Origin: Vibrio metschnikovii CIP 69.14
GTDB lineage: Bacteria > Pseudomonadota > Gammaproteobacteria > Enterobacterales > Vibrionaceae
Direction: 5' to 3'
DNA: 64,000 nt
Assembly: GCF_000176155.1 (NCBI RefSeq)
Contig: NZ_ACZO01000006.1
Location: 434,001-498,000 of the forward strand
Made by a program: the position numbers and the translations under genes. The notes beneath the pieces are model-generated. The model saw only the letters and a list, made by a program, of their open reading frames with translations. It did no database searches and had not been told where the DNA came from. Positions 5,451 through 49,607 of this stretch are shown here, piece by piece (position 1 is the first letter of the stretch; each line of letters begins with the position of its first letter).

Positions 5451-5612
5451 AAACTAATAACGATAAAGTTGTGTTACAAACATAAACTCATTTTGTTCTT
5501 TATTTCTGCATTAATTAGTAATGGGGCTATAAGCAAAAATTCATCGATTAACAATATGAGTTTGATAGTAATTAAATCTTAGGTGCTGTTGAACAGTATA
5601 AGTGAGGTCCCA

Positions 5613-6542
5613 ATGTTTTTCTTTGAATCTATACCTTGGTATAACTGGATAATGTGGTTGATTGTACTTGTTACATTAATGGGTTTAAATGAAATTATTC
5701 GTGCTAGCAAATGGGCAAGCTTGGCTATTTTTATTGCTTTGCCTATCGCTCTAACTCCAATATGGCTATATATGGGTAGTGATGTTACCTCTTGGTTTAC
5801 TTGGGTAAAGGTATATTCCGCTTTAGCCGGTAGTATTATATATTTAGTTATTCGCTTTACCGATTTTCACAAAAAGCATCCCTGGTATCTTATTTTAGTG
5901 CCCGTAATTCTCGCTATTAATATTTTTGAAGCTGTAATGCGGGAATTTCAAGTCGGTATCGCTGGTTTCAATGGTATCGTCGATGGAATGCAGTATATTT
6001 CTGGTGGCTGGAACTATGTGAACGCTTTCGCAGGCATACTAAATATTATCTTGATTTGTGGATGGACAGGCATCTTTGCGTATAGAGGGCAAAGAACTGG
6101 CGGAATTCGCTATGACATGCTCTGGCCAGATCAAATTCGCCTGTGGGTAATCGCTTATGGTATCTGGAATATTGCCTACGTTTACTCTTGTGCTCCCGGA
6201 AATGCATTTTATTCGGGTGTCGCACTTAATATTTCAGCCACTATTCCAGCTTTATTTTGGGCAAAAGGGACTTGGATGCAAAACCGAGCAGCGACCCTCA
6301 GTTTTTGGATGATGTGGGTAATGACTTTCCCTTACTTTTTTGCCATCGGTAGTACATTTAACGTCGCTCCCAGTTATAACCCAATGGCTAACTGGAGCAT
6401 ATCTCTACTCTCTTTAGTATTAAATCTGTATTTGGCAAGCTGGCAGCTACGTCGAATTTTACTAAAACGTTTAAACCCAATGAGAGATGAAATTTTTTCA
6501 GATCAGGAAGAATATAAATCCATTAATGCTTATCGCCAATAA
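5613..6542 (+). CDS. Polytopic membrane protein, DUF5692-like
   Basis: 309 residues from the ATG at 5613, which has a GAGGT ribosome-binding site six bases upstream; an in-frame GTG at 5583 would add ten residues without a ribosome-binding site. About eight hydrophobic segments span the protein, including WIMWLIVLVTLMGLNEIIRA near the N-terminus, LILVPVILAINIFEAVM in the middle and ISLLSLVLNLYLASW near the end. Tryptophans and polar residues (for example LWPDQIRLW, IWNIAYVYSC) lie between them. The sequence resembles what is annotated as DUF5692, a family without known function; that assignment is from memory and not certain. The alpha/beta hydrolase follows 64 bases downstream, probably in the same transcript. 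Confidence 0.75.
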   Translation: MFFFESIPWYNWIMWLIVLVTLMGLNEIIRASKWASLAIFIALPIALTPIWLYMGSDVTSWFTWVKVYSALAGSIIYLVIRFTDFHKKHPWYLILVPVILAINIFEAVMREFQVGIAGFNGIVDGMQYISGGWNYVNAFAGILNIILICGWTGIFAYRGQRTGGIRYDMLWPDQIRLWVIAYGIWNIAYVYSCAPGNAFYSGVALNISATIPALFWAKGTWMQNRAATLSFWMMWVMTFPYFFAIGSTFNVAPSYNPMANWSISLLSLVLNLYLASWQLRRILLKRLNPMRDEIFSDQEEYKSINAYRQ

Positions 6543-6606
6543 TCTTTAACATGCCCACAATAAATAACTTACATGTGGGCATCACTTTATTAAAAAGGAA
6601 TCTATT

Positions 6607-7521
6607 ATGAAAAAAGCACGCTTGATAGTTGTTACAATTATCATTCTGCTACTCAGTTTGCCAATCTATGTCATGTCGACTTTCATCTTCAAAAATCCTA
6701 TACCTGATGATGAATTCTCAGCAAATTTAACCAGTATTGTCGATAATCTTGAAACCAAAATCGAAGGTAAAGGTGAACATACCCTAGTTTTTATCCATGG
6801 CTATCCTGATAGTCTCGAAATGTGGGACAAACAAGCCGATTTCTTTAAAGAAAACTATCAAGTCGTCCGTTTCACTCTACCAGGTTTCGAACAAACAGAT
6901 CGCGAGTTACGCCCACACTACAGTATCAAGCAGATGAGAAGCATTATTGATAAATTTATAGAACATTTAGATCAACAATCAATTACCGTTATTGCCCATG
7001 ACTGGGGAGCAGTATATGCCTCTCATTACCTAAAACAAAACGATCTCGTTGATAGGCTTATCTTGCTTGACATCGGTAGTTTTGCCGATGAGCCGCGACC
7101 TAAAATAAATGTTCAATACACGTTAGCTTTAGCAGTTGCGTGGACTCTACCTGATTATCTTGGTACCAAGCTCGCGCTTTTCACTGCTGATAAAATCTTA
7201 CAAGTTCCACGTGTTGATCCTCATAAATCTATTGAAAATTTAAGACCAGATTCTAGATTGACTTATCCTTACTGGCATTTATGGAAAGAAGTACTGACAA
7301 GTAATACGACACAACCTGTAATAGTCGATGATTATGGAACGCCATTTTTATTTATTTATGGCAAAGACAAATCAATCTGGTTTCATGCAAAAACATGGGA
7401 ACAAGAAGTAATTGATAAAAACAAAGGTCAAATTGAAGTAGTTCCCGGTGGCCATTGGTTTATGCATTCATATCCTGAATTAGTGAACCAAAAAATCTAT
7501 AATTGGTTAAATACGAGATAG
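6607..7521 (+). CDS. Membrane-anchored alpha/beta hydrolase (epoxide hydrolase-like)
   Basis: 304 residues. Residues 5-27 are a single hydrophobic segment (LIVVTIIILLLSLPIYVM) that looks like an uncleaved anchor or signal sequence, placing the enzyme outside the cytoplasm. The fold shows HGYP at 64-67 (oxyanion hole), AHDWG with Asp132 as likely nucleophile, and GGHWF with His283. An Asp at the nucleophile elbow is typical of epoxide hydrolases and haloalkane dehalogenases rather than esterases. The acid member may be the Asp in FIYGKDKS near residue 258. The substrate is unknown. It lies behind the DUF5692-like gene and the TetR gene and may form a small detoxification module with them. Confidence 0.8.
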   Translation: MKKARLIVVTIIILLLSLPIYVMSTFIFKNPIPDDEFSANLTSIVDNLETKIEGKGEHTLVFIHGYPDSLEMWDKQADFFKENYQVVRFTLPGFEQTDRELRPHYSIKQMRSIIDKFIEHLDQQSITVIAHDWGAVYASHYLKQNDLVDRLILLDIGSFADEPRPKINVQYTLALAVAWTLPDYLGTKLALFTADKILQVPRVDPHKSIENLRPDSRLTYPYWHLWKEVLTSNTTQPVIVDDYGTPFLFIYGKDKSIWFHAKTWEQEVIDKNKGQIEVVPGGHWFMHSYPELVNQKIYNWLNTR

Positions 7522-7565
7522 ATTCAAAATAATTTTACATGTCTTTGCCTACAAAAAGATAAACC

Positions 7566-7600
7566 ATTTAAACAAACTACTTGGTGTTTCAGGTTGGCGG
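7566..7600 (+). repeat. ERIC-type repeat, left end
   Basis: Matches the left end of the 5321-5450 copy (AACAAACTACTTGGTGTTTC then AGGTTGGCGG). The following sequence is the truncated 3' end of an IS630-family transposase, so the repeat end and the IS relic are fused here. Confidence 0.55.
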
Positions 7601-8305
7601 TAAATTAATGAATCTCTTATTGACCCAAGGCACGACCATCGCTTCACCAATGCCTCTTGCAGGGCATATCCAGCCAAATAAGTAGGCGTATTCAAACTGC
7701 TGTTGTTTCACGGCTCTAGGCCTTGTACCTCGTGCTGCCCAAAGTCGGGTGGTGGTATTTTGTTGTCCAAAACGAGCTTCATCTTGAAACCAAACATCGA
7801 CATTCTCCAGCCCCATGTGGCCTGGGATCTTAAGGATCGTTTCAATTTTTAATTTTTTTAAAATCGTCTTGGATTTGCTGTAATTGTTTGGGGTGTTTTG
7901 ACCGAGAAGTGATCCATGAGAATCCCATATGGTCGAGTAAATAATAAATAGAATCAGGATGATTATGTTGACCAAATTCTTTGACAATATAAGCATGGAT
8001 ATCAGCAACAATGAGTCGTCCACCTTGTGGATTTGTAATGTATTGATCTATTTGATTTTTTTCTCAGGGGTTAATAAAGGAGGTCTTCCCGTTCTTGGTT
8101 TTTCCTTAAGTCCCTCCAGTCCTTCCTCAAGGAAGGTTTGCACCCACTTATTGACACTAGTACGGCTCACTTTAAGAAATTTAGCAATTTGGGTGTGAGA
8201 GTGGCCATCTTTAAAGTGAGCGAGGGCGAGCAATCTCATTTTCATTTGAATGGATTTTTGTTGGCTCTCCAGTTTTTTGAAGTCGATATTGTGTAAGCTA
8301 TCCAT
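7601..8305 (-). pseudogene. IS630-family transposase relic
   Basis: The N-terminal helix-turn-helix is intact from the ATG at 8305: MKMRLLALAHFKDGHSHTQI and RTSVNKWVQTFLEEG, then GRPPLLTPEKK. A frame change near 8050 leads to GGRLIVADIHAYIVKEFG and YYLLDHMGFSW. A second near 7860 leads to the first catalytic Asp region VDVWFQDEARFGQQ. The coding sequence stops at VPWVNKRF against an ERIC end, so the later catalytic Asp and Glu are missing. Two frameshifts and a lost C-terminus make it non-functional. Confidence 0.85.
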
Positions 8306-41359: not shown

Positions 41360-42199
41360 TTAACCAAAGCGACCCGTGATGTAATCTTCCGTGCGGCTAT
41401 CACGCGGGTTGGTGAATATTTCTCGTGTATCATTAAGCTCGACGAGATTACCCATGTGGAAAAATGCGGTTTTATCGGAGACGCGCGCTGCTTGTTGCAT
41501 ATTGTGCGTGACCATCGCGATGGTGTAGCTGCCTTTCAGTTCATCAATCAAATCTTCAATGATTGAGGTCGCAATAGGGTCGAGTGCCGAACAAGGCTCA
41601 TCCATTAAGATAACTTCAGGATTGACGGCAATCGCGCGCGCAATACAAAGGCGCTGTTGTTGACCACCAGACAGCCCTGTCCCTGGAGCAGAAAGGCGAT
41701 CTTTGACTTCATTCCACAGTCCTGCACGGCGTAAACTGTTTTCAACAATTTCTTCTAAGTCGGCTTTATTATCGACTAAACCGTGCAAACGAGGCCCATA
41801 AGCAATATTTTCGTAGATTGATTTTGGGAATGGATTCGGTTTTTGAAATACCATCCCCACTTGCGCACGGAGTTGTACGACATCAAGGCTAGGGTGATAG
41901 ATATCTTGCCCATCCAAGGTGACAGAGCCTTCAACGCGTGCGCTATCAATGGTGTCATTCATGCGATTTAAACAACGTAGAAAGGTCGATTTGCCACAGC
42001 CGGAAGGGCCGATAAAAGCGACGACTTCATTTTCTACAATATCCATATTGATGCCATGCAAGGCTTGTGATTCACCATAGAACACTTTGACATCACGGGC
42101 GGCCATTTTGGTACTTTTTACCGCAGTGGATGACGATGCTTTACGCACAATATCAGGGTTAATCATCGGCTGTTTATTCATTACTGCTTCACTTATCAT
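41360..42199 (-). CDS. pstB: Phosphate ABC transporter ATPase PstB
   Basis: 279 residues; Walker [11 protein letters not shown]-loop [19 protein letters not shown] (PstB-specific), signature [14 protein letters not shown], Walker [14 protein letters not shown] and H-loop VTHNMQQA. An N-terminal extension of about 30 residues precedes the ABC domain; an alternative ATG six codons in is possible. It is six bases after pstA. Confidence 0.96.
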
Positions 42200-42205
42200 G
42201 TTGGG

Positions 42206-43600
42206 TTACCACCGTGTTTCAAAGCGTCGACGTAACCAGATGGCCAACGCATTCAGACTGATCATTAATGCTAGCAATACGATGATTGCAGCAGAGGTTC
42301 TTGCTTCAAAGAAGTTACGGAGTTCATTACCTTGCCATAAGAAAATTTGTACTGGCAAAGCGGTTGACTGATCCATCGGCGTACTTGGAATACTGGCAAC
42401 AAACGAGTTCATACCGATTAATAACAGCGGTGCGGTCTCGCCCAATGCTTGTGCGATACCTAAAATCGCGCCGGTTAAAATTCCTGGAAGAGCCAGCGGC
42501 AGCACGTGGTGAAATACCGCTTGAGTTTTTGATGCGCCAATACCTAGCGCTGCTTGACGGATCGATGGCGGAATCGCTTTTAAGGTTGAACGAGTTGCAA
42601 TAATCACCGTTGGCAGTGTCATCAGAGTTAACACTAAACCGCCGACAAACGGTGCGGATAACGGTAGTTTAAACCATAAAATAAACACCGATGCACCGAG
42701 TAGACCAAACACAATTGAAGGAACGGCGGCGAGGTTATTAATGTTCACTTCAATAAAATCCGTCAGTTTGTTTTTCGGCGCAAACTCTTCCAAATAAATG
42801 GCGGAAGCCACCCCGATCGGTACTGAGAGCACCATGACGATCAGCATCATAAACACCGAACCCATAAACGCACCCGCTAAGCCAGCCGACGCTAAAGAGC
42901 TGCGTGAGTCGACATTCATAAATAAAGCGGTGCTGAATTTATTCTGAATCACGCCACGGTCTGCCAGTTCATCAGCCCAAGCCCGAGTGCGAGCACTTAA
43001 TTGCTGGCGCGAGTCGGGTAAATCGCGATCAATATTGCCTTTTAACCACACATCGACATTCGCATCGGCTAATAAATCTAAGCGTAGCGTTTTACCGATC
43101 AATGACGGGTCATTGACTAACATGTCGCGCAGTGCGAAACGTTCACCACTAGTGATTAAGCGTAAAGCATCACGTTGATAGCGGGGCGCTTCGGGTATTT
43201 CTTTGGCTAAACTATTGACGATAATTCGGTTGAAATTGACCATCCCCACTTGACCTTGCCAAGCGAGCATCCGTTGTTGAAATTCACCCGCGGACTCGCC
43301 ACTGAGCTGAACGGGTTTCGGCTCAATATTGATTACCTCAGGATCGAAATAAACGTTCAAACTTACCGTCGCTTGCCAAAAAGCAGGAATACCTTTGGAA
43401 AAAACGGAAACAAACAGAATCAATACAAAGCTGAGGGCTAAGCCAACAGCTCCCATACCAAACGCTTTAAAACGACGTTCACTGGCGTGGCGTTTTTTGA
43501 GTGATTTAGCAATACGCAGTTGCGTTTTCTCACGTAGCTTATTCGTATCGCTCATTGATTGAGTTGAGGTTGGCATAATACTGTCCATGAAATTACTCAT
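42206..43600 (-). CDS. pstA: Phosphate ABC transporter permease PstA (long form)
   Basis: 464 residues, against about 296 in E. coli. After the first membrane helix (about 48-70) comes a periplasmic insert of some 170 residues (DUF3333 type) before the ordinary permease core with five helices. The EAA loop is in RSTLKAIPPSIRQAALGIGA. Long PstA of this kind is usual in Vibrio and other marine bacteria. Its start overlaps the pstC stop by eight bases. Confidence 0.93.
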   Translation of the reverse strand: MSNFMDSIMPTSTQSMSDTNKLREKTQLRIAKSLKKRHASERRFKAFGMGAVGLALSFVLILFVSVFSKGIPAFWQATVSLNVYFDPEVINIEPKPVQLSGESAGEFQQRMLAWQGQVGMVNFNRIIVNSLAKEIPEAPRYQRDALRLITSGERFALRDMLVNDPSLIGKTLRLDLLADANVDVWLKGNIDRDLPDSRQQLSARTRAWADELADRGVIQNKFSTALFMNVDSRSSLASAGLAGAFMGSVFMMLIVMVLSVPIGVASAIYLEEFAPKNKLTDFIEVNINNLAAVPSIVFGLLGASVFILWFKLPLSAPFVGGLVLTLMTLPTVIIATRSTLKAIPPSIRQAALGIGASKTQAVFHHVLPLALPGILTGAILGIAQALGETAPLLLIGMNSFVASIPSTPMDQSTALPVQIFLWQGNELRNFFEARTSAAIIVLLALMISLNALAIWLRRRFETRW

Positions 43601-44978
43601 ATTGTTCGCGGTATTTACGTACGATGACTAACGCAATGACGTTAAGAAATAGGGTAATCACAAACAGCGTTAACCCTAAGGCAAAGGCCACCAGTGATTG
43701 TGGGCTAGAGAAATCCAGATCGCCGGTTAATTGATTGACGATCGTCACGGTCATGGTCGATACGGCTTCAAAAGGATTGGCCGTTAATACCGGGCTATTG
43801 CCTGCAGCCAACACGACGATCATGGTTTCGCCAATCGCACGGCTGGCGGCGAGTAGTACGGCTCCGGTAATGCCCGGCAATGCCGCGGGCAAAACGACTT
43901 TACGTATCGTTTCTGATTTTGTCGCTCCTAGACCCAGCGAGCCATCTCTTAAGGCTTTGGGAACTTGGGTGAGGATGTCATCCGAAAGAGAAGAGATAAA
44001 CGGGATGATCATTAACCCCATCACGACCCCTGCAGTTAGGGCTGACGTGGCACGAATATCAATATTTAATATTTCGCCTATTCCACTCAGAAAAGGGCCG
44101 ACGGTGATCAAGGCAAAGAAGCCATAGACAATGGTTGGGATCCCTGCCAGCACTTCGATAATCGGTTTTGCCACAGAGCGAACTCGACTTGGGGCATATT
44201 CGGCTAAGTAGATCGCGGCCATCAAACCGACTGGAATGGCGACGGCAAGAGCGATAAGCGCAATCATGAACGCTCCCGCTAGCAGCGGCAGCATACCAAA
44301 ACCACTTTGGCCGCTGGTGCCTACGGTTGAGAAGCGTGGATTCCATGTCGTACCAAAAAAGAAATCGAGTGGGTCGACAAAGCTAAAAAAGCGAAAGGCT
44401 TCTCCCAACATTGATAGCACAATGCCGATCGTCGTCAGAATGGCTACACCAGAACAAAGAATAAGTACGATGTGCAACGCACGTTCAACGTGGTTACGAG
44501 CTCGCAGATCTGGACGAATACGACGGGTACTAAAGACGACGCCCGTCGCCGCTAACGTTGCCATTAAGCTACTTAAGATAACGTGACTCGTAAATTGTAC
44601 TTGTTGTAGGTATTCAGCCGCCGCGATTTGATAATCACTGAATTCACTCACTACGGCAAAGCCGCTGACTAAGTTATTCAATTGGTTCATCAATACGCGA
44701 GCGTGATCGGCGGTAGCGGGTTGAAACTCACTGGGGATACTGCTGAGCACTAAGTTTTGAATGAAATTAGGGGAAAATATCGTCCATAAAACAAACACTA
44801 AAAAAGCGGGTACGACAGCCCAAAGTAGGGTCAATACACCGTGATAAACTGGACGAGAATGCAGGCGTTGAGTCTGCCCGCTGCTGGTTGATGCCACTCT
44901 TTTACTGCGCACGAGCCCGAGCTGATAAGCCAAAGCCATGACTGCCAGTAGTACCACCATTAGCATCATATTATTCAT
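43593..44978 (-). CDS. pstC: Phosphate ABC transporter permease PstC (long form)
   Basis: 461 residues with an N-terminal extension: a helix at 1-20, a second helix (about 46-70), then a periplasmic region before the core of six helices. The core has GMLPLLAGAFMIALIALAVA, YLAEYAPSRVRSVAKPIIEV, the EAA loop KALRDGSLGLGATKSETI and ASRAIGETMIVVLAAGNSP. It lies downstream of pstS behind an intercistronic hairpin and overlaps pstA. Confidence 0.93.
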   Translation of the reverse strand: MNNMMLMVVLLAVMALAYQLGLVRSKRVASTSSGQTQRLHSRPVYHGVLTLLWAVVPAFLVFVLWTIFSPNFIQNLVLSSIPSEFQPATADHARVLMNQLNNLVSGFAVVSEFSDYQIAAAEYLQQVQFTSHVILSSLMATLAATGVVFSTRRIRPDLRARNHVERALHIVLILCSGVAILTTIGIVLSMLGEAFRFFSFVDPLDFFFGTTWNPRFSTVGTSGQSGFGMLPLLAGAFMIALIALAVAIPVGLMAAIYLAEYAPSRVRSVAKPIIEVLAGIPTIVYGFFALITVGPFLSGIGEILNIDIRATSALTAGVVMGLMIIPFISSLSDDILTQVPKALRDGSLGLGATKSETIRKVVLPAALPGITGAVLLAASRAIGETMIVVLAAGNSPVLTANPFEAVSTMTVTIVNQLTGDLDFSSPQSLVAFALGLTLFVITLFLNVIALVIVRKYREQYE

Positions 44979-45004
44979 AATTGTGATTACCTTTTAAAAG
45001 CAAT

Positions 45005-45034
45005 AGTAAGAGAGACGTTAATGCCTCTCTTACT
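45005..45034 (-). other. Intercistronic hairpin pstS-pstC
   Basis: AGTAAGAGAG pairs with CTCTCTTACT around a ten-base loop. Without a T-run on the minus strand it is probably a partial terminator or 3' stabiliser, giving more PstS than permease as in other binding-protein operons. Confidence 0.6.
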
Positions 45035-45049
45035 GAATTATTACTTTAT

Positions 45050-46072
45050 TTATAAAGTCTTACGGTTGCGAATATCGTTTGAAACTTGCGCGCGCTCAGC
45101 GTCATCCATTGGGATTAGGCCAGCTTCTTCTAATGGGCTACCCATGCCACCAATCTGTTCGTTGACGAAGAATTGAGCGTATTCAAGTAGGCCAGGGACA
45201 ACACCAACGTGGGCATTTTTGATATAGAAGAATAAAGGACGAGATACCGGATATTCACCCGTTGAAATGGTCTCTAAACTTGGAGTGACACCATCGACCG
45301 TTGCCACTTTTAAGCGGTCACGGTTTTGGTCATAGAAGCTGAGGCCAAATACACCTAATGCGTTACGCTGTGCATCGAGACGAGCCAGTGTTTCTGTATA
45401 GTCGCCAGCGACTTCCACTACGCGTCCATCGGTACGAATCGCGTTACAGAAGTTTTCTTTGGCTTTGCTATCCATGGCTTTGACTTCAGCAAACGTTGCA
45501 CAACCCGGGTGGACAACTTTTTCTTCATACACTTCACGGGTGCCGTGGTTAGATCCAGGAATGACCAATAAGATATCTTGATCCGGTAGTGAAGGATCAA
45601 TCTGTTTCCAGTTAGTGTAAGGGTTATTAACCATTTTACCGTTTTGAGGAATTTGCGCTGCGCCTGCTTTAAAAACATGTTCAGGTTTTAGTGCAAAACT
45701 GCCACTGTCTGTGCGTGAAGCAAAGACAATACCGTCATAACCGATTTTCACTTCGATGACTTCATTCACGCCGTTGGCTTTACAGTTTGCAAGCTCATTG
45801 GGACGGATAGCACGAGAAGAGTTAGCAATATCAATGGTGTTGACACCAACACCTTGACAAAACTGGCGAAGGCCGCCGCCTGAGCCACCTGATCCAACAA
45901 TCGGTGTATTAAATTGAGCAAAAGTTTGCCCAAACTCTTCAGCAACGATTGATGAAAATGGCAGCACAGTCGATGAGCCAGCAATTTGGATAGTTTCACG
46001 AGCCATTGCAGGTGCTGAGATAGCCGTGGCGACGGTTGAGGCAAGCAATAGCGCGTTGCGTCCAAACTTCAT
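45050..46072 (-). CDS. pstS: Periplasmic phosphate-binding protein PstS
   Basis: 340 residues from the ATG at 46072 (GAGGGA upstream). A Sec signal peptide runs to about residue 24 (ISAPAMA). The phosphate-binding loops are IAGSSTVLPFS, GSGGSGGGLRQFC and DIANSSRAI, and PGSNHGTREVYEE corresponds to the SGT loop. Two cysteine pairs are visible (QFCQG/NCKAN and GCATF/NFCNA). It belongs to the PstS group of Vibrio/Pseudomonas rather than the E. coli type. The promoter has two Pho boxes about 100 bases upstream. Confidence 0.93.
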   Translation of the reverse strand: MKFGRNALLLASTVATAISAPAMARETIQIAGSSTVLPFSSIVAEEFGQTFAQFNTPIVGSGGSGGGLRQFCQGVGVNTIDIANSSRAIRPNELANCKANGVNEVIEVKIGYDGIVFASRTDSGSFALKPEHVFKAGAAQIPQNGKMVNNPYTNWKQIDPSLPDQDILLVIPGSNHGTREVYEEKVVHPGCATFAEVKAMDSKAKENFCNAIRTDGRVVEVAGDYTETLARLDAQRNALGVFGLSFYDQNRDRLKVATVDGVTPSLETISTGEYPVSRPLFFYIKNAHVGVVPGLLEYAQFFVNEQIGGMGSPLEEAGLIPMDDAERAQVSNDIRNRKTL

Positions 46073-46173
46073 AGTATTTCCCTCGTTCATTCACGTTGTT
46101 AACCGCTTTGGCATCATGCCTTTCAAGTTGCGGCTGTGTTTGGTTTAACTAAAACGGATTTTGGGTGGTTTGT

Positions 46174-46213: not shown

Positions 46214-46409
46214 CGTAGGGAGAGGAGGGGGTGGTAGAAGCGAGTTTTTCAACCCGTTAGCGTAGGCTAGCACGGTAGTATGACGTTCTAATGGCATTAC
46301 CAAGATGATCTTTTTGAATATGAAAATTTCATGACAACCGTTGGTTGAGGATTGACAGGGATAATAATGAACTTAATATATTCACATATCCATATAAGGT
46401 TGTGAGCTT

Positions 46410-46751
46410 ATGTTACCTCATCAATTTTTTAAACTATTGGCTGATGAAACTCGAGTACGCTGTCTATTAATGATTGCTCGTGAACAGAACCTCTGCGTCG
46501 CGGAGTTAACGGCGGCATTAGAAGAGAGCCAGCCCAAAATATCGCGTCATCTTGCTTTATTAAGAGCGAGTGGCGTTGTCGTCGATGCCCGTCAAGGTCA
46601 GTGGGTATTTTATCGCTTATCTGATCAGCTACCTGGCTGGATGAAAAAACAGATCCAAGGTCTAGTGGATTCAAATTGTTTACGAGCGGAATACCAGCTT
46701 GATATTGAACGTTTGACGGCGATGAAATCACGTCCGCTATGTTGTGCCTAA
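46410..46751 (+). CDS. arsR: ArsR-family regulator of the arsJ cluster
   Basis: 113 residues, ArsR/SmtB winged helix: FFKLLADETRVRCLLMI, EESQPKISRHLALLRASGV and GQWVFYRLSDQLPGW. The CVC sensor pair of classic ArsR is reduced to one Cys (NLCVAEL, Cys29), with another at 18 (VRCLL) and a CC pair near the C-terminus (111-112). The arsenic-binding geometry therefore differs from the ArsR at 33124. It is first gene of the arsR-gapdh-phosphatase-arsJ operon and divergent from pstS. Confidence 0.92.
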   Translation: MLPHQFFKLLADETRVRCLLMIAREQNLCVAELTAALEESQPKISRHLALLRASGVVVDARQGQWVFYRLSDQLPGWMKKQIQGLVDSNCLRAEYQLDIERLTAMKSRPLCCA

Positions 46752-46820: not shown

Positions 46821-47822
46821 ATGACGATTAAAGTAGGAATTAACGGTTTTGGCCGTATTGGCCGTTTGGCATTGCGCGCGGCTTATGATTGGCCAGAGCT
46901 GGAATTTGTGCAGATCAATGATGTAGCTGGCGATGCGGCAACGTTGGCACACTTATTGGAGTTTGACTCTGTGCAAGGTCGTTGGCATCACCCTGTCTTG
47001 GCTGATGGCGACAGCATCATTATTGGTCAACATAAAATTCAAACCTCCCAACAAAAAGCCATCGATGCCGTAGATTGGTCAGATTGTGATGTGGTGATTG
47101 AAGCGACGGGTAAACATCGTAAAACGGAGTTACTTAATCTGTATCTCGCTCAAGGCGTCAAGCGTGTGGTGGTTTCCGCTCCAGTAAAAGAGCCGGGTGT
47201 AGCGAACATTGTCGTCGGTGTTAACGATCATATTTTTAACCCAGACCAACACCGAATTGTTACTGCGGCATCGTGCACGACCAACTGCATTGCGCCGATT
47301 GTTAAAGTGATTCATGAAAAATTAGGCATCGAGCAATCCTCATTTACGACCATTCACGATTTAACCAATACTCAAACCATTTTAGATGCGCCGCATAAAG
47401 ATCTGCGCCGTGCTCGTGCGTGTGGGATGAGCCTTATCCCAACAACGACTGGTTCGGCAACCGCGATTGTCGAAATATTCCCTGATCTGAAAGACAAAAT
47501 TAATGGTCATGCGGTACGAGTACCACTCGCTAATGCGTCACTGACCGATATTATTTTTGATGTTAAACGTGATACCACCGCTGATGAGGTTAATGCTTTG
47601 CTTAAAGCGGCATCAGAGAATGAACTGCAAGGTATTTTAGGCTTTGAAACACGTCCATTGGTATCGATTGACTATAAAGGCGATCAGCGTTCAACGATTG
47701 TTGATGCTTTATCAACCATGGTGGTGGGTAAACGGATGGTGAAAATTTACGCTTGGTACGATAACGAAATGGGCTACGCAACGCGTACCGCTGAACTGGT
47801 GCGTAACGTTGGTTCAGTATAA
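46821..47822 (+). CDS. Glyceraldehyde-3-phosphate dehydrogenase of the ArsJ pathway
   Basis: 333 residues; NAD-binding [15 protein letters not shown], catalytic Cys152 in AASCTTNC, and the C-terminal [11 protein letters not shown]. In arsJ operons this dedicated GAPDH uses arsenate instead of phosphate to make 1-arseno-3-phosphoglycerate, which ArsJ exports. The position between arsR and arsJ fits that role rather than central glycolysis. After the nicotinamide fold it has [20 protein letters not shown] where glycolytic GAPDHs commonly read ATQ(K)TVDGPS..W-RGGR. Confidence 0.93.
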
Positions 47823-47832
47823 GGAGAAGGCA

Positions 47833-48327
47833 ATGACACATCCAACTTGGGAACTGCCGGTTACTGATCAGGCGGGATTAATACTCACGCCTTGTCCGGG
47901 CACAAAACAAACGGCGCTGACCGAAAGTATTGCGCAATTAAAAGCACAGGGGGTCACGGTCGTGGTGACGGCGCTGAGCCAACAAGAGATGCAAGAACAT
48001 GGCGTTGGCCAATTGCCAGAAGAGGTAGAGAAAGCCGGACTGCTTTGGTTGCATGCCCCAATCGCTGATGATTGTGCACCGGATGAAGCTTTCCACGCTC
48101 GCTGGCAACACATTACGCCTTTAGTACATAAAGCCTTAGGTCATGGTGATAAAGTGGCGTTGCACTGTATGGGTGGTTCGGGTCGTACGGGATTATTAGC
48201 TGCTCATGTTTTGCTTGAGAAGGGCTGGCCACTGGAAACGATCATTGCCAAGGTACAGGCCCTACGTCCAGGCGCTTTCACTAAAGCGGATCAGGTCGAT
48301 TATATTCATCAGTTTGTTGGTCAATAA
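47833..48327 (+). CDS. Dual-specificity/CDKN3-like tyrosine phosphatase in the arsJ operon
   Basis: 164 residues from the ATG at 47833, with AAGGAGAAGG upstream and ten bases after the GAPDH stop. The PTP loop is HCMGGSGRTG with Cys112 and Arg118 (HC-X5-R), and a general-acid candidate lies in HAPIADDCAPD. An N-terminal ILTPCPGTK and the linker resemble CDKN3-type phosphatases. In the operon it sits between the arsenylating GAPDH and the arsenophosphoglycerate exporter, suggesting a part in arsenate handling. HC-X5-R enzymes of the CDC25/PTP type can act as arsenate reductases; whether this one does is unknown. Confidence 0.85.
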   Translation: MTHPTWELPVTDQAGLILTPCPGTKQTALTESIAQLKAQGVTVVVTALSQQEMQEHGVGQLPEEVEKAGLLWLHAPIADDCAPDEAFHARWQHITPLVHKALGHGDKVALHCMGGSGRTGLLAAHVLLEKGWPLETIIAKVQALRPGAFTKADQVDYIHQFVGQ

Positions 48328-48380: not shown

Positions 48381-49607
48381 ATGTTGTCCCAATTCAATAA
48401 CAGTGTGCGCCAATATATGTTGGTGACGTTCAATTACTGGAATTTTACCATTACCGATGGCGCATTGCGTATGTTGGTGGTGCTGTATTTTTATGATTTA
48501 GGTTATTCGACGTTAGCGATCGCTTCGTTATTTTTGTTCTATGAATTTTTTGGCGTGGTGACCAACTTAATTGGTGGCTGGCTTGGTGCAAGGCTTGGCT
48601 TAAATCGCACCATGAATATTGGCTTAGGTATGCAAATCATCGCATTATTAATGTTAGCCGTACCTGCCGCGTGGTTGACGATCCCGTTAGTGATGGCAGC
48701 ACAAGCGCTCTCTGGTATTGCCAAAGATCTCAATAAAATGAGTGCAAAAAGTGCCATTAAAACGTTGCTTCCAGATAATGCACAAGGGGCGTTATATAAA
48801 TGGATAGCTATTCTGACGGGGTCAAAAAATGCGTTGAAAGGCGCTGGTTTTTTCCTTGGTGGTGTCTTGCTCTCGCTGATCGGTTTTCAATACGCAGTGC
48901 TGGCGATGGCTGGCGTATTATTGGTCGTCTTTGTTGGCAGTATTGTTAGTCTACAAGCCGATATTGGCAAAGCCAAAAATAAACCCAAATTTTCAGAAAT
49001 TTTTTCCAAATCACGTAGCGTGAATATTTTATCGGCGGCGCGGATGTTCTTATTCGGAGCTCGTGATGTCTGGTTTGTGATCGCTTTACCGATTTATCTT
49101 GGTAGTGTATTTGGCTGGGATCACAGTGCCGTGGGCGGATTTTTAGCCTTGTGGGTAATTGGCTATGGTGTTATCCAAGGGTTTGCGCCGAAAATCACCG
49201 GTAGTGCTTCTGGTCAAGTGCCGGATGGTCGTTCTGCCATGGGGTGGGCCGCTTTATTGGCTTTCGTCACTGGAGTGATTGCTTACAGTATTCAGGCCCA
49301 ATGGCACCCGCAAGTGGTGATCATCGGTGGATTATTACTTTTTGGTGCGATTTTCGCGGTTAACTCCTCCTTGCATTCTTATTTAATTGTCAGTTATGCC
49401 AAAGGAGATGGGGTGTCATTGGATGTTGGTTTTTACTACATGGCCAATGCGATGGGGCGCTTGATTGGCACCATTTTATCCGGTTGGGTATTTCAAGAGT
49501 GGGGATTAGCCGCGTGCTTGTGGGTTTCCTTTGCTTTCTTGTTACTGACCACCTTAATTTCGATCGGATTACCGAAAGTCAAGCCACAGGATAGATTAGC
49601 GACCTAA
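48381..49607 (+). CDS. arsJ: 1-arseno-3-phosphoglycerate exporter ArsJ
   Basis: 408 residues, major facilitator superfamily with about 11-12 helices. The N-terminus (QYMLVTFNYWNFTITDGALR, then MLVVLYFYDLGYS) and MSAKSAIKTLLPDNAQGALYKW in the central part are diagnostic ArsJ stretches. It expels the unstable 1-arseno-3-phosphoglycerate made by the neighbouring GAPDH; outside it decays to arsenate. It is last gene of the operon. Confidence 0.95.
   Translation: MLSQFNNSVRQYMLVTFNYWNFTITDGALRMLVVLYFYDLGYSTLAIASLFLFYEFFGVVTNLIGGWLGARLGLNRTMNIGLGMQIIALLMLAVPAAWLTIPLVMAAQALSGIAKDLNKMSAKSAIKTLLPDNAQGALYKWIAILTGSKNALKGAGFFLGGVLLSLIGFQYAVLAMAGVLLVVFVGSIVSLQADIGKAKNKPKFSEIFSKSRSVNILSAARMFLFGARDVWFVIALPIYLGSVFGWDHSAVGGFLALWVIGYGVIQGFAPKITGSASGQVPDGRSAMGWAALLAFVTGVIAYSIQAQWHPQVVIIGGLLLFGAIFAVNSSLHSYLIVSYAKGDGVSLDVGFYYMANAMGRLIGTILSGWVFQEWGLAACLWVSFAFLLLTTLISIGLPKVKPQDRLAT

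What the first reader, a model, noticed from the sequence alone, without database searches (positions are those of the whole stretch)
47833..48327. HC-X5-R phosphatase between the arsenylating GAPDH and ArsJ
The gene is ten bases after gapdh and 53 before arsJ, with an intact HCMGGSGRTG loop. It has no assigned part in the two-step ArsJ pathway. It could reduce arsenate like CDC25/Acr2-type enzymes, remove phosphate from the exported compound or its breakdown products, or dephosphorylate a regulator. It may be the missing reductase of this region.
Basis: partly seen in the sequence, partly recalled or inferred. Interest (0 to 1): 0.6.

Follow-up and report, generated by a model that had tools for sequence, protein, structure and literature searches.

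The report
VarH phosphatase of arsenate-resistance operons
The gene is the Vibrio arsenate-resistance phosphatase VarH, whose relatives turn out to sit in arsenic operons of other bacteria too, so it is a largely known gene with a wider reach than described.

Summary
In detail: a 164-aa Cys phosphatase (47833-48327, HCMGGSGRTG, Cys112/Arg118) lies 10 bases after the ArsJ-associated GAPDH and 53 before arsJ, in arsR-varG-varH-arsJ. It does have an assigned part: it is the ortholog of Vibrio cholerae VarH (vc1070, mBio 2022), a weak phosphatase whose Cys/Arg mutant is arsenate-sensitive and whose deletion raises 1-arseno-3-phosphoglycerate; the authors propose an "arsenatase". The reductase idea is not supported: wild-type V. 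cholerae made no arsenite, the fold is KAP-type phosphatase (Z 21.4), and no rhodanese domain matched. New here: the paper calls VarH "rather exclusive" to Vibrionaceae, but relatives occur in 72 of 248 genomes of one other family (probably Pseudomonadaceae); all 77 copies lie near ars genes, 74 as varH-varG-arsJ. Relatives also sit in reductase-type ars operons without gapdh/arsJ on plasmids. In 30 ArsJ-matched pairs from that family, arsC accompanied only the VarH+ operon in 16 and only the VarH- one in 0; Vibrionaceae do not show this. Best reading: VarH regenerates free arsenate for whichever exit is present (ArsJ, or ArsC plus an arsenite pump). Its action on an arsenate ester is inferred, not shown. 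Interest is moderate.

The parts
46352..46379 (+). promoter-like TTGACA-N16-TAATAT, 30 bases before arsR; consensus match only
   Evidence: 10 of 12 positions; 8 promoter-like sites found in the region against a mean of 7.0 in shuffles, so not evidence by itself
46410..46751 (+). arsR, ArsR/SmtB repressor; metal-site motif reads LCVAEL (second Cys replaced by Ala)
46821..47822 (+). varG, ArsJ-associated glyceraldehyde-3-phosphate dehydrogenase
   Evidence: NF033735 556 bits (cut-off 450)
47833..48327 (+). varH, KAP-like dual-specificity Cys phosphatase, 164 aa
47893..47895 (+). Cys21 codon, second invariant cysteine (TPCPGTK)
   Evidence: present in 65 of 65 rows checked
48067..48072 (+). Asp79-Asp80, candidate general acid; role inferred from the PTP superfamily. 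Asp79 is invariant in both alignments, Asp80 only in the Vibrionaceae-type one
48163..48192 (+). catalytic loop H111-C112-MGGSG-R118-TG
   Evidence: HCxGG[ST]GRTG in 65 of 65 rows checked
48381..49607 (+). arsJ, MFS transporter
   Evidence: NF033734 612 bits (cut-off 400)

Best explanation
The gene is varH, third gene of an arsR-varG-varH-arsJ operon. VarG (with the housekeeping GAPDH) joins arsenate to glyceraldehyde-3-phosphate, giving 1-arseno-3-phosphoglycerate. VarH is a KAP-like dual-specificity phosphatase. Its Arg118 loop would bind the arsenyl group, Cys112 attack it and Asp79 or Asp80 protonate the leaving group, giving 3-phosphoglycerate and free arsenate. Free arsenate then leaves through ArsJ or, in relatives with an arsC-acr3/arsB operon, is reduced and exported. 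Shown by others, in V. cholerae: arsenate induction of the operon, weak Cys/Arg-dependent phosphatase activity, need for Cys/Arg in resistance, rise of 1-arseno-3-phosphoglycerate without VarH. Shown here: orthology by sequence, operon and motif; predicted fold; wide conservation. Inferred: that VarH itself hydrolyses the arsenate ester, what ArsJ carries, and any link to ArsC.
For: Same gene order as vc1068-1071; V. metoecus and V. mimicus (74% and 73% identical to the window protein) carry the pair at C113/R119, the numbers published for VarH. C113G/R119G VarH lost pNPPase activity and its strain grew poorly with arsenate; 1As3PG rose in the varH deletion; VarG phosphorylation did not change. 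Model pLDDT 94.8, pTM 0.90; best solved match human KAP, Z 21.4, rmsd 2.0 over 161 residues. Co-occurrence with ArsJ: Vibrionaceae 253 both, 7 VarH only, 17 ArsJ only, 19 neither of 296; family of G162 72, 0, 69, 107 of 248 (Fisher tests there take no account of kinship). 77 of 77 copies in that family lie within 6 kb of other ars genes, 74 as VarH-VarG-ArsJ on one strand. There VarH-positive ArsJ operons are enriched in ArsC, 16 to 0 of 30 matched pairs. Vibrionaceae genomes with VarH but no VarG/ArsJ have an arsR-arsH-acr3-arsC operon elsewhere in 6 of 7.
Against: Activity on 1As3PG could not be confirmed in vitro; the compound is very unstable, so an enzyme for its hydrolysis may seem unneeded. 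69 of 141 ArsJ-positive genomes in the family of G162 and 17 of 270 in Vibrionaceae do without VarH, and in a class-wide sample only 2 of 73 ArsJ-positive genomes have VarH beside ArsJ, so the step is dispensable. Chen et al. 2016 (not held; as reported) held that ArsJ exports 1As3PG itself, which would make prior hydrolysis counterproductive. VarH copies in operons or genomes without VarG/ArsJ show that VarG's product is not its only reason to exist. The ArsC link is absent in Vibrionaceae: 1 of 35 named var loci has ArsC and 3 have Acr3 within about 6 kb.
Confidence: 0.6

Rival explanations
1. VarH is a metabolite phosphatase: it clears 1,3-bisphosphoglycerate or another glycolytic phosphate that piles up when arsenate disturbs the GAPDH step, or removes the 3-phosphate; 1As3PG rises in its absence only indirectly.
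For: It is a genuine, weak phosphatase on pNPP. The distant G218 relative lies among pst-like, phosphoglycerate-mutase-like and histidine-phosphatase-like genes. VarH persists without VarG/ArsJ.
Against: 1AsG, the product of removing the 3-phosphate, was not detected in V. cholerae. The conserved neighbours in the family of G162 are arsenic genes (77 of 77; only ars genes were searched for there).
Confidence: 0.18
2. VarH is an arsenate-binding buffer or carrier: its oxyanion loop binds free arsenate and hands it to ArsJ or ArsC; catalysis on pNPP is incidental.
For: The published C113G/R119G change would be expected to abolish oxyanion binding as well as catalysis (inference). Association with both ArsJ and ArsC contexts suits a carrier of free arsenate.
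Against: Nothing measured; stoichiometric buffering at millimolar arsenate would need very much protein.
Confidence: 0.1
3. VarH is a protein phosphatase acting on a regulator or transporter of the operon.
For: Fold and sequence closest to KAP and other protein phosphatases.
Against: VarG phosphorylation at Tyr108 and Ser204 was independent of VarH. VarH occurs in unlike ars operons with different neighbours.
Confidence: 0.08
4. VarH is an arsenate reductase.
For: HCX5R loop; two invariant cysteines (C21, C112) leave a redox role formally open. A weak NCBIfam match to a 'sulfur transferase' model, 17.7 bits against a cut-off of 85.85.
Against: Wild-type V. cholerae made no As(III). No rhodanese family among Pfam matches. 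57 of 74 VarH-VarG-ArsJ operons in the family of G162 already hold ArsC. No arsenite pump near the window's operon or in 32 of 35 named var loci.
Confidence: 0.04

Closest known systems
VarH (vc1070) of the Vibrio cholerae var operon, PMC9601151
   Same: Gene order arsR-varG-varH-arsJ, KAP-like DSP, catalytic Cys/Arg; close relatives share the published residue numbers
   Different: VC1070 itself was not in the collections searched; nearest stand-ins V. metoecus and V. mimicus are 74% and 73% identical to the window protein
Human KAP (CDKN3), PDB 1fpz/1fq1
   Same: Best solved fold (Z 21.4, rmsd 2.0, 161 aligned, 27% identity); Pfam CDKN3 31.6 bits over its 20.7 cut-off
   Different: KAP acts on phospho-CDK2; here the setting is an arsenic operon
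Putative tyrosine phosphatase after gapdh-arsJ in ICEpMERPH (PMC6947025) and BN5_2710 of P. pseudoalcaligenes CECT 5344 (PMC10138600)
   Same: PTP gene beside gapdh and arsJ, outside Vibrio chromosomes
   Different: The passages seen list it without a function; sequences not compared here
CDC25/Acr2-type arsenate reductases
   Same: HCX5R active-site loop
   Different: Those have a rhodanese-like domain; none matched here
'LTFCPGK'-type DSPs, one fused to an ADP-ribosylglycohydrolase (L175), others in the class survey (e.g. L117, L120)
   Same: Same superfamily, next relatives in the class survey
   Different: Separate clade (100/99 support); none of 14 ars-marker queries other than VarH matched in 10 flanking stretches searched

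Membership tests
VarH of the var operon | Located in arsR-varG-varH-arsJ | tested here: met
VarH of the var operon | Catalytic Cys and Arg in the loop | tested here: met
   C112/R118; C113/R119 in V. mimicus and V. metoecus
VarH of the var operon | Arsenate-dependent phenotype and 1As3PG effect | not testable with these tools
   seen only for V. cholerae
KAP-like dual-specificity phosphatase (Pfam CDKN3, Tc-R-P) | Profile score over the curated cut-off | tested here: met
   PF22785 48.4 bits (27), PF05706 31.6 bits (20.7), PF22784 28.6 (27); DSPc PF00782 28.7 is under its cut-off of 33.5
KAP-like dual-specificity phosphatase | PTP/DSP fold | tested here: met
   1fpz Z 21.4 (predicted model)
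CDC25/Acr2-type arsenate reductase | Rhodanese-like domain | tested here: not met
   no rhodanese family among the 7 Pfam matches (HMMER's filters drop most very weak ones); defining feature from PMC9454679 passages
CDC25/Acr2-type arsenate reductase | HCX5R loop | tested here: met
LMW-PTP (thioredoxin-coupled) ArsC | Catalytic CX5R near the N-terminus | tested here: not met
   Cys at 112 of 164; feature from PMC9454679 passages
Arsenatase (arsenate-ester hydrolase) | Hydrolysis of 1As3PG by the pure enzyme | not testable with these tools
   also unconfirmed in the paper read

The most novel reading that the evidence does not exclude
VarH is the Vibrionaceae branch of a widespread, unnamed ars gene family: an arsenate-ester hydrolase that returns arsenate trapped in glycolytic esters to whichever exit the cell has, ArsJ export or ArsC reduction with Acr3/ArsB. 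It is a third, mobile module of arsenate resistance, gained and lost repeatedly beside ArsJ and also carried in reductase operons.
Probability: 0.45. Interest if true: 0.65.

Novelty: new member of a known kind. Interest (0 to 1): 0.42.

Why it matters
The papers seen disagree on whether ArsJ exports 1-arseno-3-phosphoglycerate or free arsenate. Natural operons with closely similar ArsJ (up to 98% identity) that differ in VarH make this testable in harmless strains. The survey also shows that a gene described as nearly confined to Vibrionaceae sits in ars operons of other families and on plasmids (28 of 66 matched records typed conjugative), annotated there as 'cyclin-dependent kinase inhibitor 3 family protein', 'dual specificity protein phosphatase' or 'tyrosine-protein phosphatase'.

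Tried and rejected
Arsenate reductase: rejected as best reading (see rivals). No CDC25 chain appears among the 50 rows shown by each fold search; this absence proves nothing by itself.

NCBIfam gives no specific family for VarH: best matches 17.7 bits against a cut-off of 85.85 and 17.5 against 505.

C21 as a PRL-like backdoor cysteine: I compared with human PRL and KAP sequences recalled from memory, in reasoning only; the position did not correspond; not used as evidence.

Class-level VarH matches of E 3.6e-36 and weaker were set aside as a separate phosphatase group: 9 of the 16 loci fetched for such matches, with L175, form one clade apart, and 10 flanking stretches held none of the other ars markers. 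One is annotated as an ADP-ribosylglycohydrolase fusion; L152 has such a hydrolase next door, under its cut-off. In the VarH tree 8 rows (L118, L119, L123, L125, L126, L128, L130, L174) were left out because my start or strand choice gave junk or a fragment, or a piece of a long ORF; 75 rows remained. In the ArsJ tree 7 of 74 VarH+ and 2 of 40 VarH- rows were lost because the tblastn stretch held a stop or was not over 330 residues.

The context windows first differed (6 kb around VarH, 5 kb around ArsJ); with one 5-kb window around ArsJ the ArsC result stayed 16 to 0, while Acr3 fell to 13 against 2 and ArsH to 11 against 1. The enrichment may partly mean that VarH sits in larger clusters. 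'ArsC' in these counts is the thioredoxin-type query. The 40 VarH- operons were taken by score from the rows shown, 40 of 69 genomes. Fisher tests take no account of kinship.

Linkage in Vibrionaceae was read only from the 150 rows shown in each: 76 genomes visible in both, 68 linked; the other 177 of 253 genomes with both genes were not checked.

I take it for Pseudomonadaceae because its VarH is closest to Pseudomonas plasmid copies. A 16S check did not settle it: G758's 16S had no Pseudomonas record among the best rows, best full-length match Acinetobacter at 88.6%; for G162 I sent the wrong stretch, so that result says nothing.

Paper searches for VarH outside Vibrionaceae: licensed PMC papers only. 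They gave two listings of such a gene without function and no survey among the papers opened. 'Not described' is limited to that. Papers seen: PMC9601151 abstract, passages and sections 5, 9, 12; PMC6947025, PMC10138600, PMC5511913, PMC6205960, PMC5930303, PMC3834237, PMC9454679 passages only; Chen et al. 2016 nothing; all others listing only.

Full report
Observation. The neighbours pass curated models for ArsJ-associated GAPDH and ArsJ; the first gene is an ArsR/SmtB repressor. The window is from a Vibrio: VarH of V. injensis is 99% identical, and its ArsR, VarG, ArsJ and PstS match at 93-100%. One copy was found in the window's genome.

Identity. It is the ortholog of VarH, gene vc1070 of the Vibrio cholerae var operon (vc1068-1071: arsR, varG, varH, arsJ). 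What is published (PMC9601151; I read the abstract, passages and sections 5, 9, 12): the operon is induced by arsenate and needed for resistance. VarH is a weak pNPP phosphatase; its C113G/R119G form is inactive and its strain grows poorly with arsenate. VarG phosphorylation is unchanged without VarH. 1-arseno-3-phosphoglycerate (1As3PG) rises in the varH deletion, 1AsG is not seen, and activity on 1As3PG could not be confirmed in vitro. The authors propose an 'arsenatase' that frees arsenate for ArsJ, and call VarH 'rather exclusive to the Vibrionaceae'. V. metoecus and V. mimicus VarH, 74% and 73% identical to the window's, carry the pair at C113/R119; in the window it is C112/R118.

Fold. 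Pfam puts it over the cut-off for CDKN3/KAP and two related DSP families and under it for DSPc. AlphaFold2 on an alignment of 31 sequences gave pLDDT 94.8 and pTM 0.90. The best solved match is human KAP, Z 21.4, rmsd 2.0 over 161 residues, 27% identity. The loop HCxGG[ST]GRTG and a second cysteine (C21) are in 65 of 65 rows checked; D79 is invariant in both alignments.

Vibrionaceae survey (new). In 296 genomes VarH is in 260 and ArsJ in 270: both 253, VarH only 7, ArsJ only 17, neither 19. Of 48 named relatives, 35 have ArsJ beside VarH, 34 of these also VarG; 13 stand alone, and none of those 13 has another ars marker within its flanks. Stand-alone copies fall in at least two places of the VarH tree (3 changes, at least 2 forced). 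The Photobacterium ones sit inside a clade made up mostly of operon copies (15 of 22 rows; 99/96 support), so linkage was probably lost there. In three genomes of g274 (G394, G399, G382) the VarG-ArsJ pair is a divergent type, 67-71% identical to the window's; in a fourth (G423) ArsJ is of the common type, 84%.

VarH without VarG/ArsJ in Vibrionaceae. The 7 VarH-only genomes lack VarG over its cut-off. All 33 genomes tested hold an ArsC-family gene (TIGR00014 over cut-off), the window's genome too, 303 kb from the window's start. Six of the 7 VarH-only genomes have at least one more ArsC hit; none of the other 26 has. In all six, one extra ArsC lies in an arsR-arsH-acr3-arsC operon; a third copy in G485 stands alone (Acr3 and ArsC of L324 over cut-off). 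VarH is not beside it.

Outside Vibrionaceae (new). In a class-wide sample of 369 genomes, 73 hold ArsJ over cut-off and only 2 (the window's genome and G162) have a VarH match beside it, so most ArsJ operons do without VarH. In the family of G162 (19 genera in the sample; genomes unnamed, which I take for Pseudomonadaceae) VarH is in 72 of 248 genomes, 77 copies, all with E of 3.5e-62 or better. ArsJ is in 141; both 72, VarH only 0, ArsJ only 69, neither 107. All 77 copies lie within 6 kb of other ars genes; 74 are VarH-VarG-ArsJ, all 74 on one strand. The order differs from Vibrio (VarG-VarH-ArsJ). Of the three exceptions one is cut by a contig end and two are partial clusters. Marinomonas, Methylophaga and Pseudoalteromonas also have VarH with VarG and ArsJ.

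VarH in reductase operons. On plasmids, relatives stand in ars operons without gapdh or arsJ: Klebsiella, Citrobacter, Enterobacter (arsC, arsC, VarH, permease, arsR, arsH), Shewanella (arsR-arsC-acr3-VarH-arsC) and Pseudomonas sp. CIP-10 (arsR-arsB-arsC-arsH-VarH-arsO-arsN1). In the unnamed G145 it follows an ArsC-like gene and acr3. An E. coli plasmid carries a broken copy in such an operon. None of these six plasmid records holds ArsJ; G145 does, on another contig. I read 15 plasmid records; searches matched 68 and 66. Of the 15: six have VarG and an ArsJ match (in L163 ArsJ is in two pieces), six are the reductase type just named, one is a Photobacterium var operon, one (Aeromonas, chromosome-sized) has no ars marker nearby, and one is the ADP-ribosylglycohydrolase type.

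What VarH travels with. In the family of G162, an ArsJ tree of 105 rows needs 19 changes of the VarH label, at least 10 forced by well-supported forks (FastTree, local support only). One pair of ArsJ proteins with and without VarH is 98% identical. VarH thus looks like a separable accessory, not tied to a special ArsJ. An ArsC reductase is in 57 of 74 VarH+ and 8 of 40 VarH- ArsJ operons. In 30 ArsJ-matched pairs (at least 85% identity) it is in both 7 times, only with VarH 16, only without VarH 0, neither 7; the same with equal 5-kb windows. Acr3 and ArsH show weaker trends, so part of this may be cluster size. Vibrionaceae do not share it: 1 of 35 named var loci has ArsC and 3 have Acr3 nearby.

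Mechanism. The best single reading is that VarH returns arsenate held in 1As3PG (made by VarG or by housekeeping GAPDH) to free arsenate, for export by ArsJ or reduction by ArsC and export by Acr3/ArsB. The known phenotypes and the context data fit; the catalytic step, the cargo of ArsJ and the ArsC link are inferred. Against it stand the failed in vitro test, the instability of 1As3PG, and the many ArsJ operons without VarH.

Reductase reading. Wild-type V. cholerae makes no As(III), VarH matched no rhodanese family, and many VarH operons already hold ArsC. Not supported.

Verdict. The finding is real and mostly known. The extension, that VarH is an ars-operon phosphatase well beyond Vibrionaceae and also found in reductase operons, is new relative to the papers I could search; two papers list such a gene without comment in the passages seen.

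Noticed in passing
window 41360-46090 (-): A pstS-pstC-pstA-pstB-like phosphate-uptake operon lies divergently next to arsR. A PstS over 85% identical lies beside the var operon in L002, L006 and L012: arsenate and phosphate uptake genes as neighbours.
   Followed up: partly
window 46410-46751 and 33 related arsR genes: The ArsR metal site reads LCVAEL in the window. Of 34 ArsRs compared (the window's included) 12 keep CVC and 22 lack the second Cys, one of them the first too. The published idea that ArsR senses arsenate because of this change would not hold for all var operons.
   Followed up: partly
L011 (Vibrio sp. HDW18) 5538-7774: ArsR-VarH-ArsJ without VarG between them: a natural VarH+ VarG- operon. 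Whether VarG lies elsewhere in that genome was not checked.
   Followed up: no
L151 and L131 (G218): A distant VarH-like gene (P0002) lies about 12 kb from an arsenite oxidase aioBA pair (TIGR02694/TIGR02693 over cut-off), beside pst-like, phosphoglycerate-mutase-like and histidine-phosphatase-like genes and an aroA. No ArsJ in that genome and no other ars marker in L131.
   Followed up: partly
L174 5986-6495 (E. coli plasmid): A broken VarH-like gene, annotated as two small ORFs, at the end of an arsRDABC operon.
   Followed up: no
L133 5134-5913, L169 4185-4949: An ArsC-like and an ArsR part are joined in one reading frame upstream of the varH-varG-arsJ genes.
   Followed up: partly
L145, L147, L150 (G399, G394, G382): VarG-ArsJ pairs only 67-71% identical to the window's in the Enterovibrio/Grimontia group look like replacement of the native operon; VarH stands elsewhere in G399 and G394 and was not found in G382.
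   Followed up: partly
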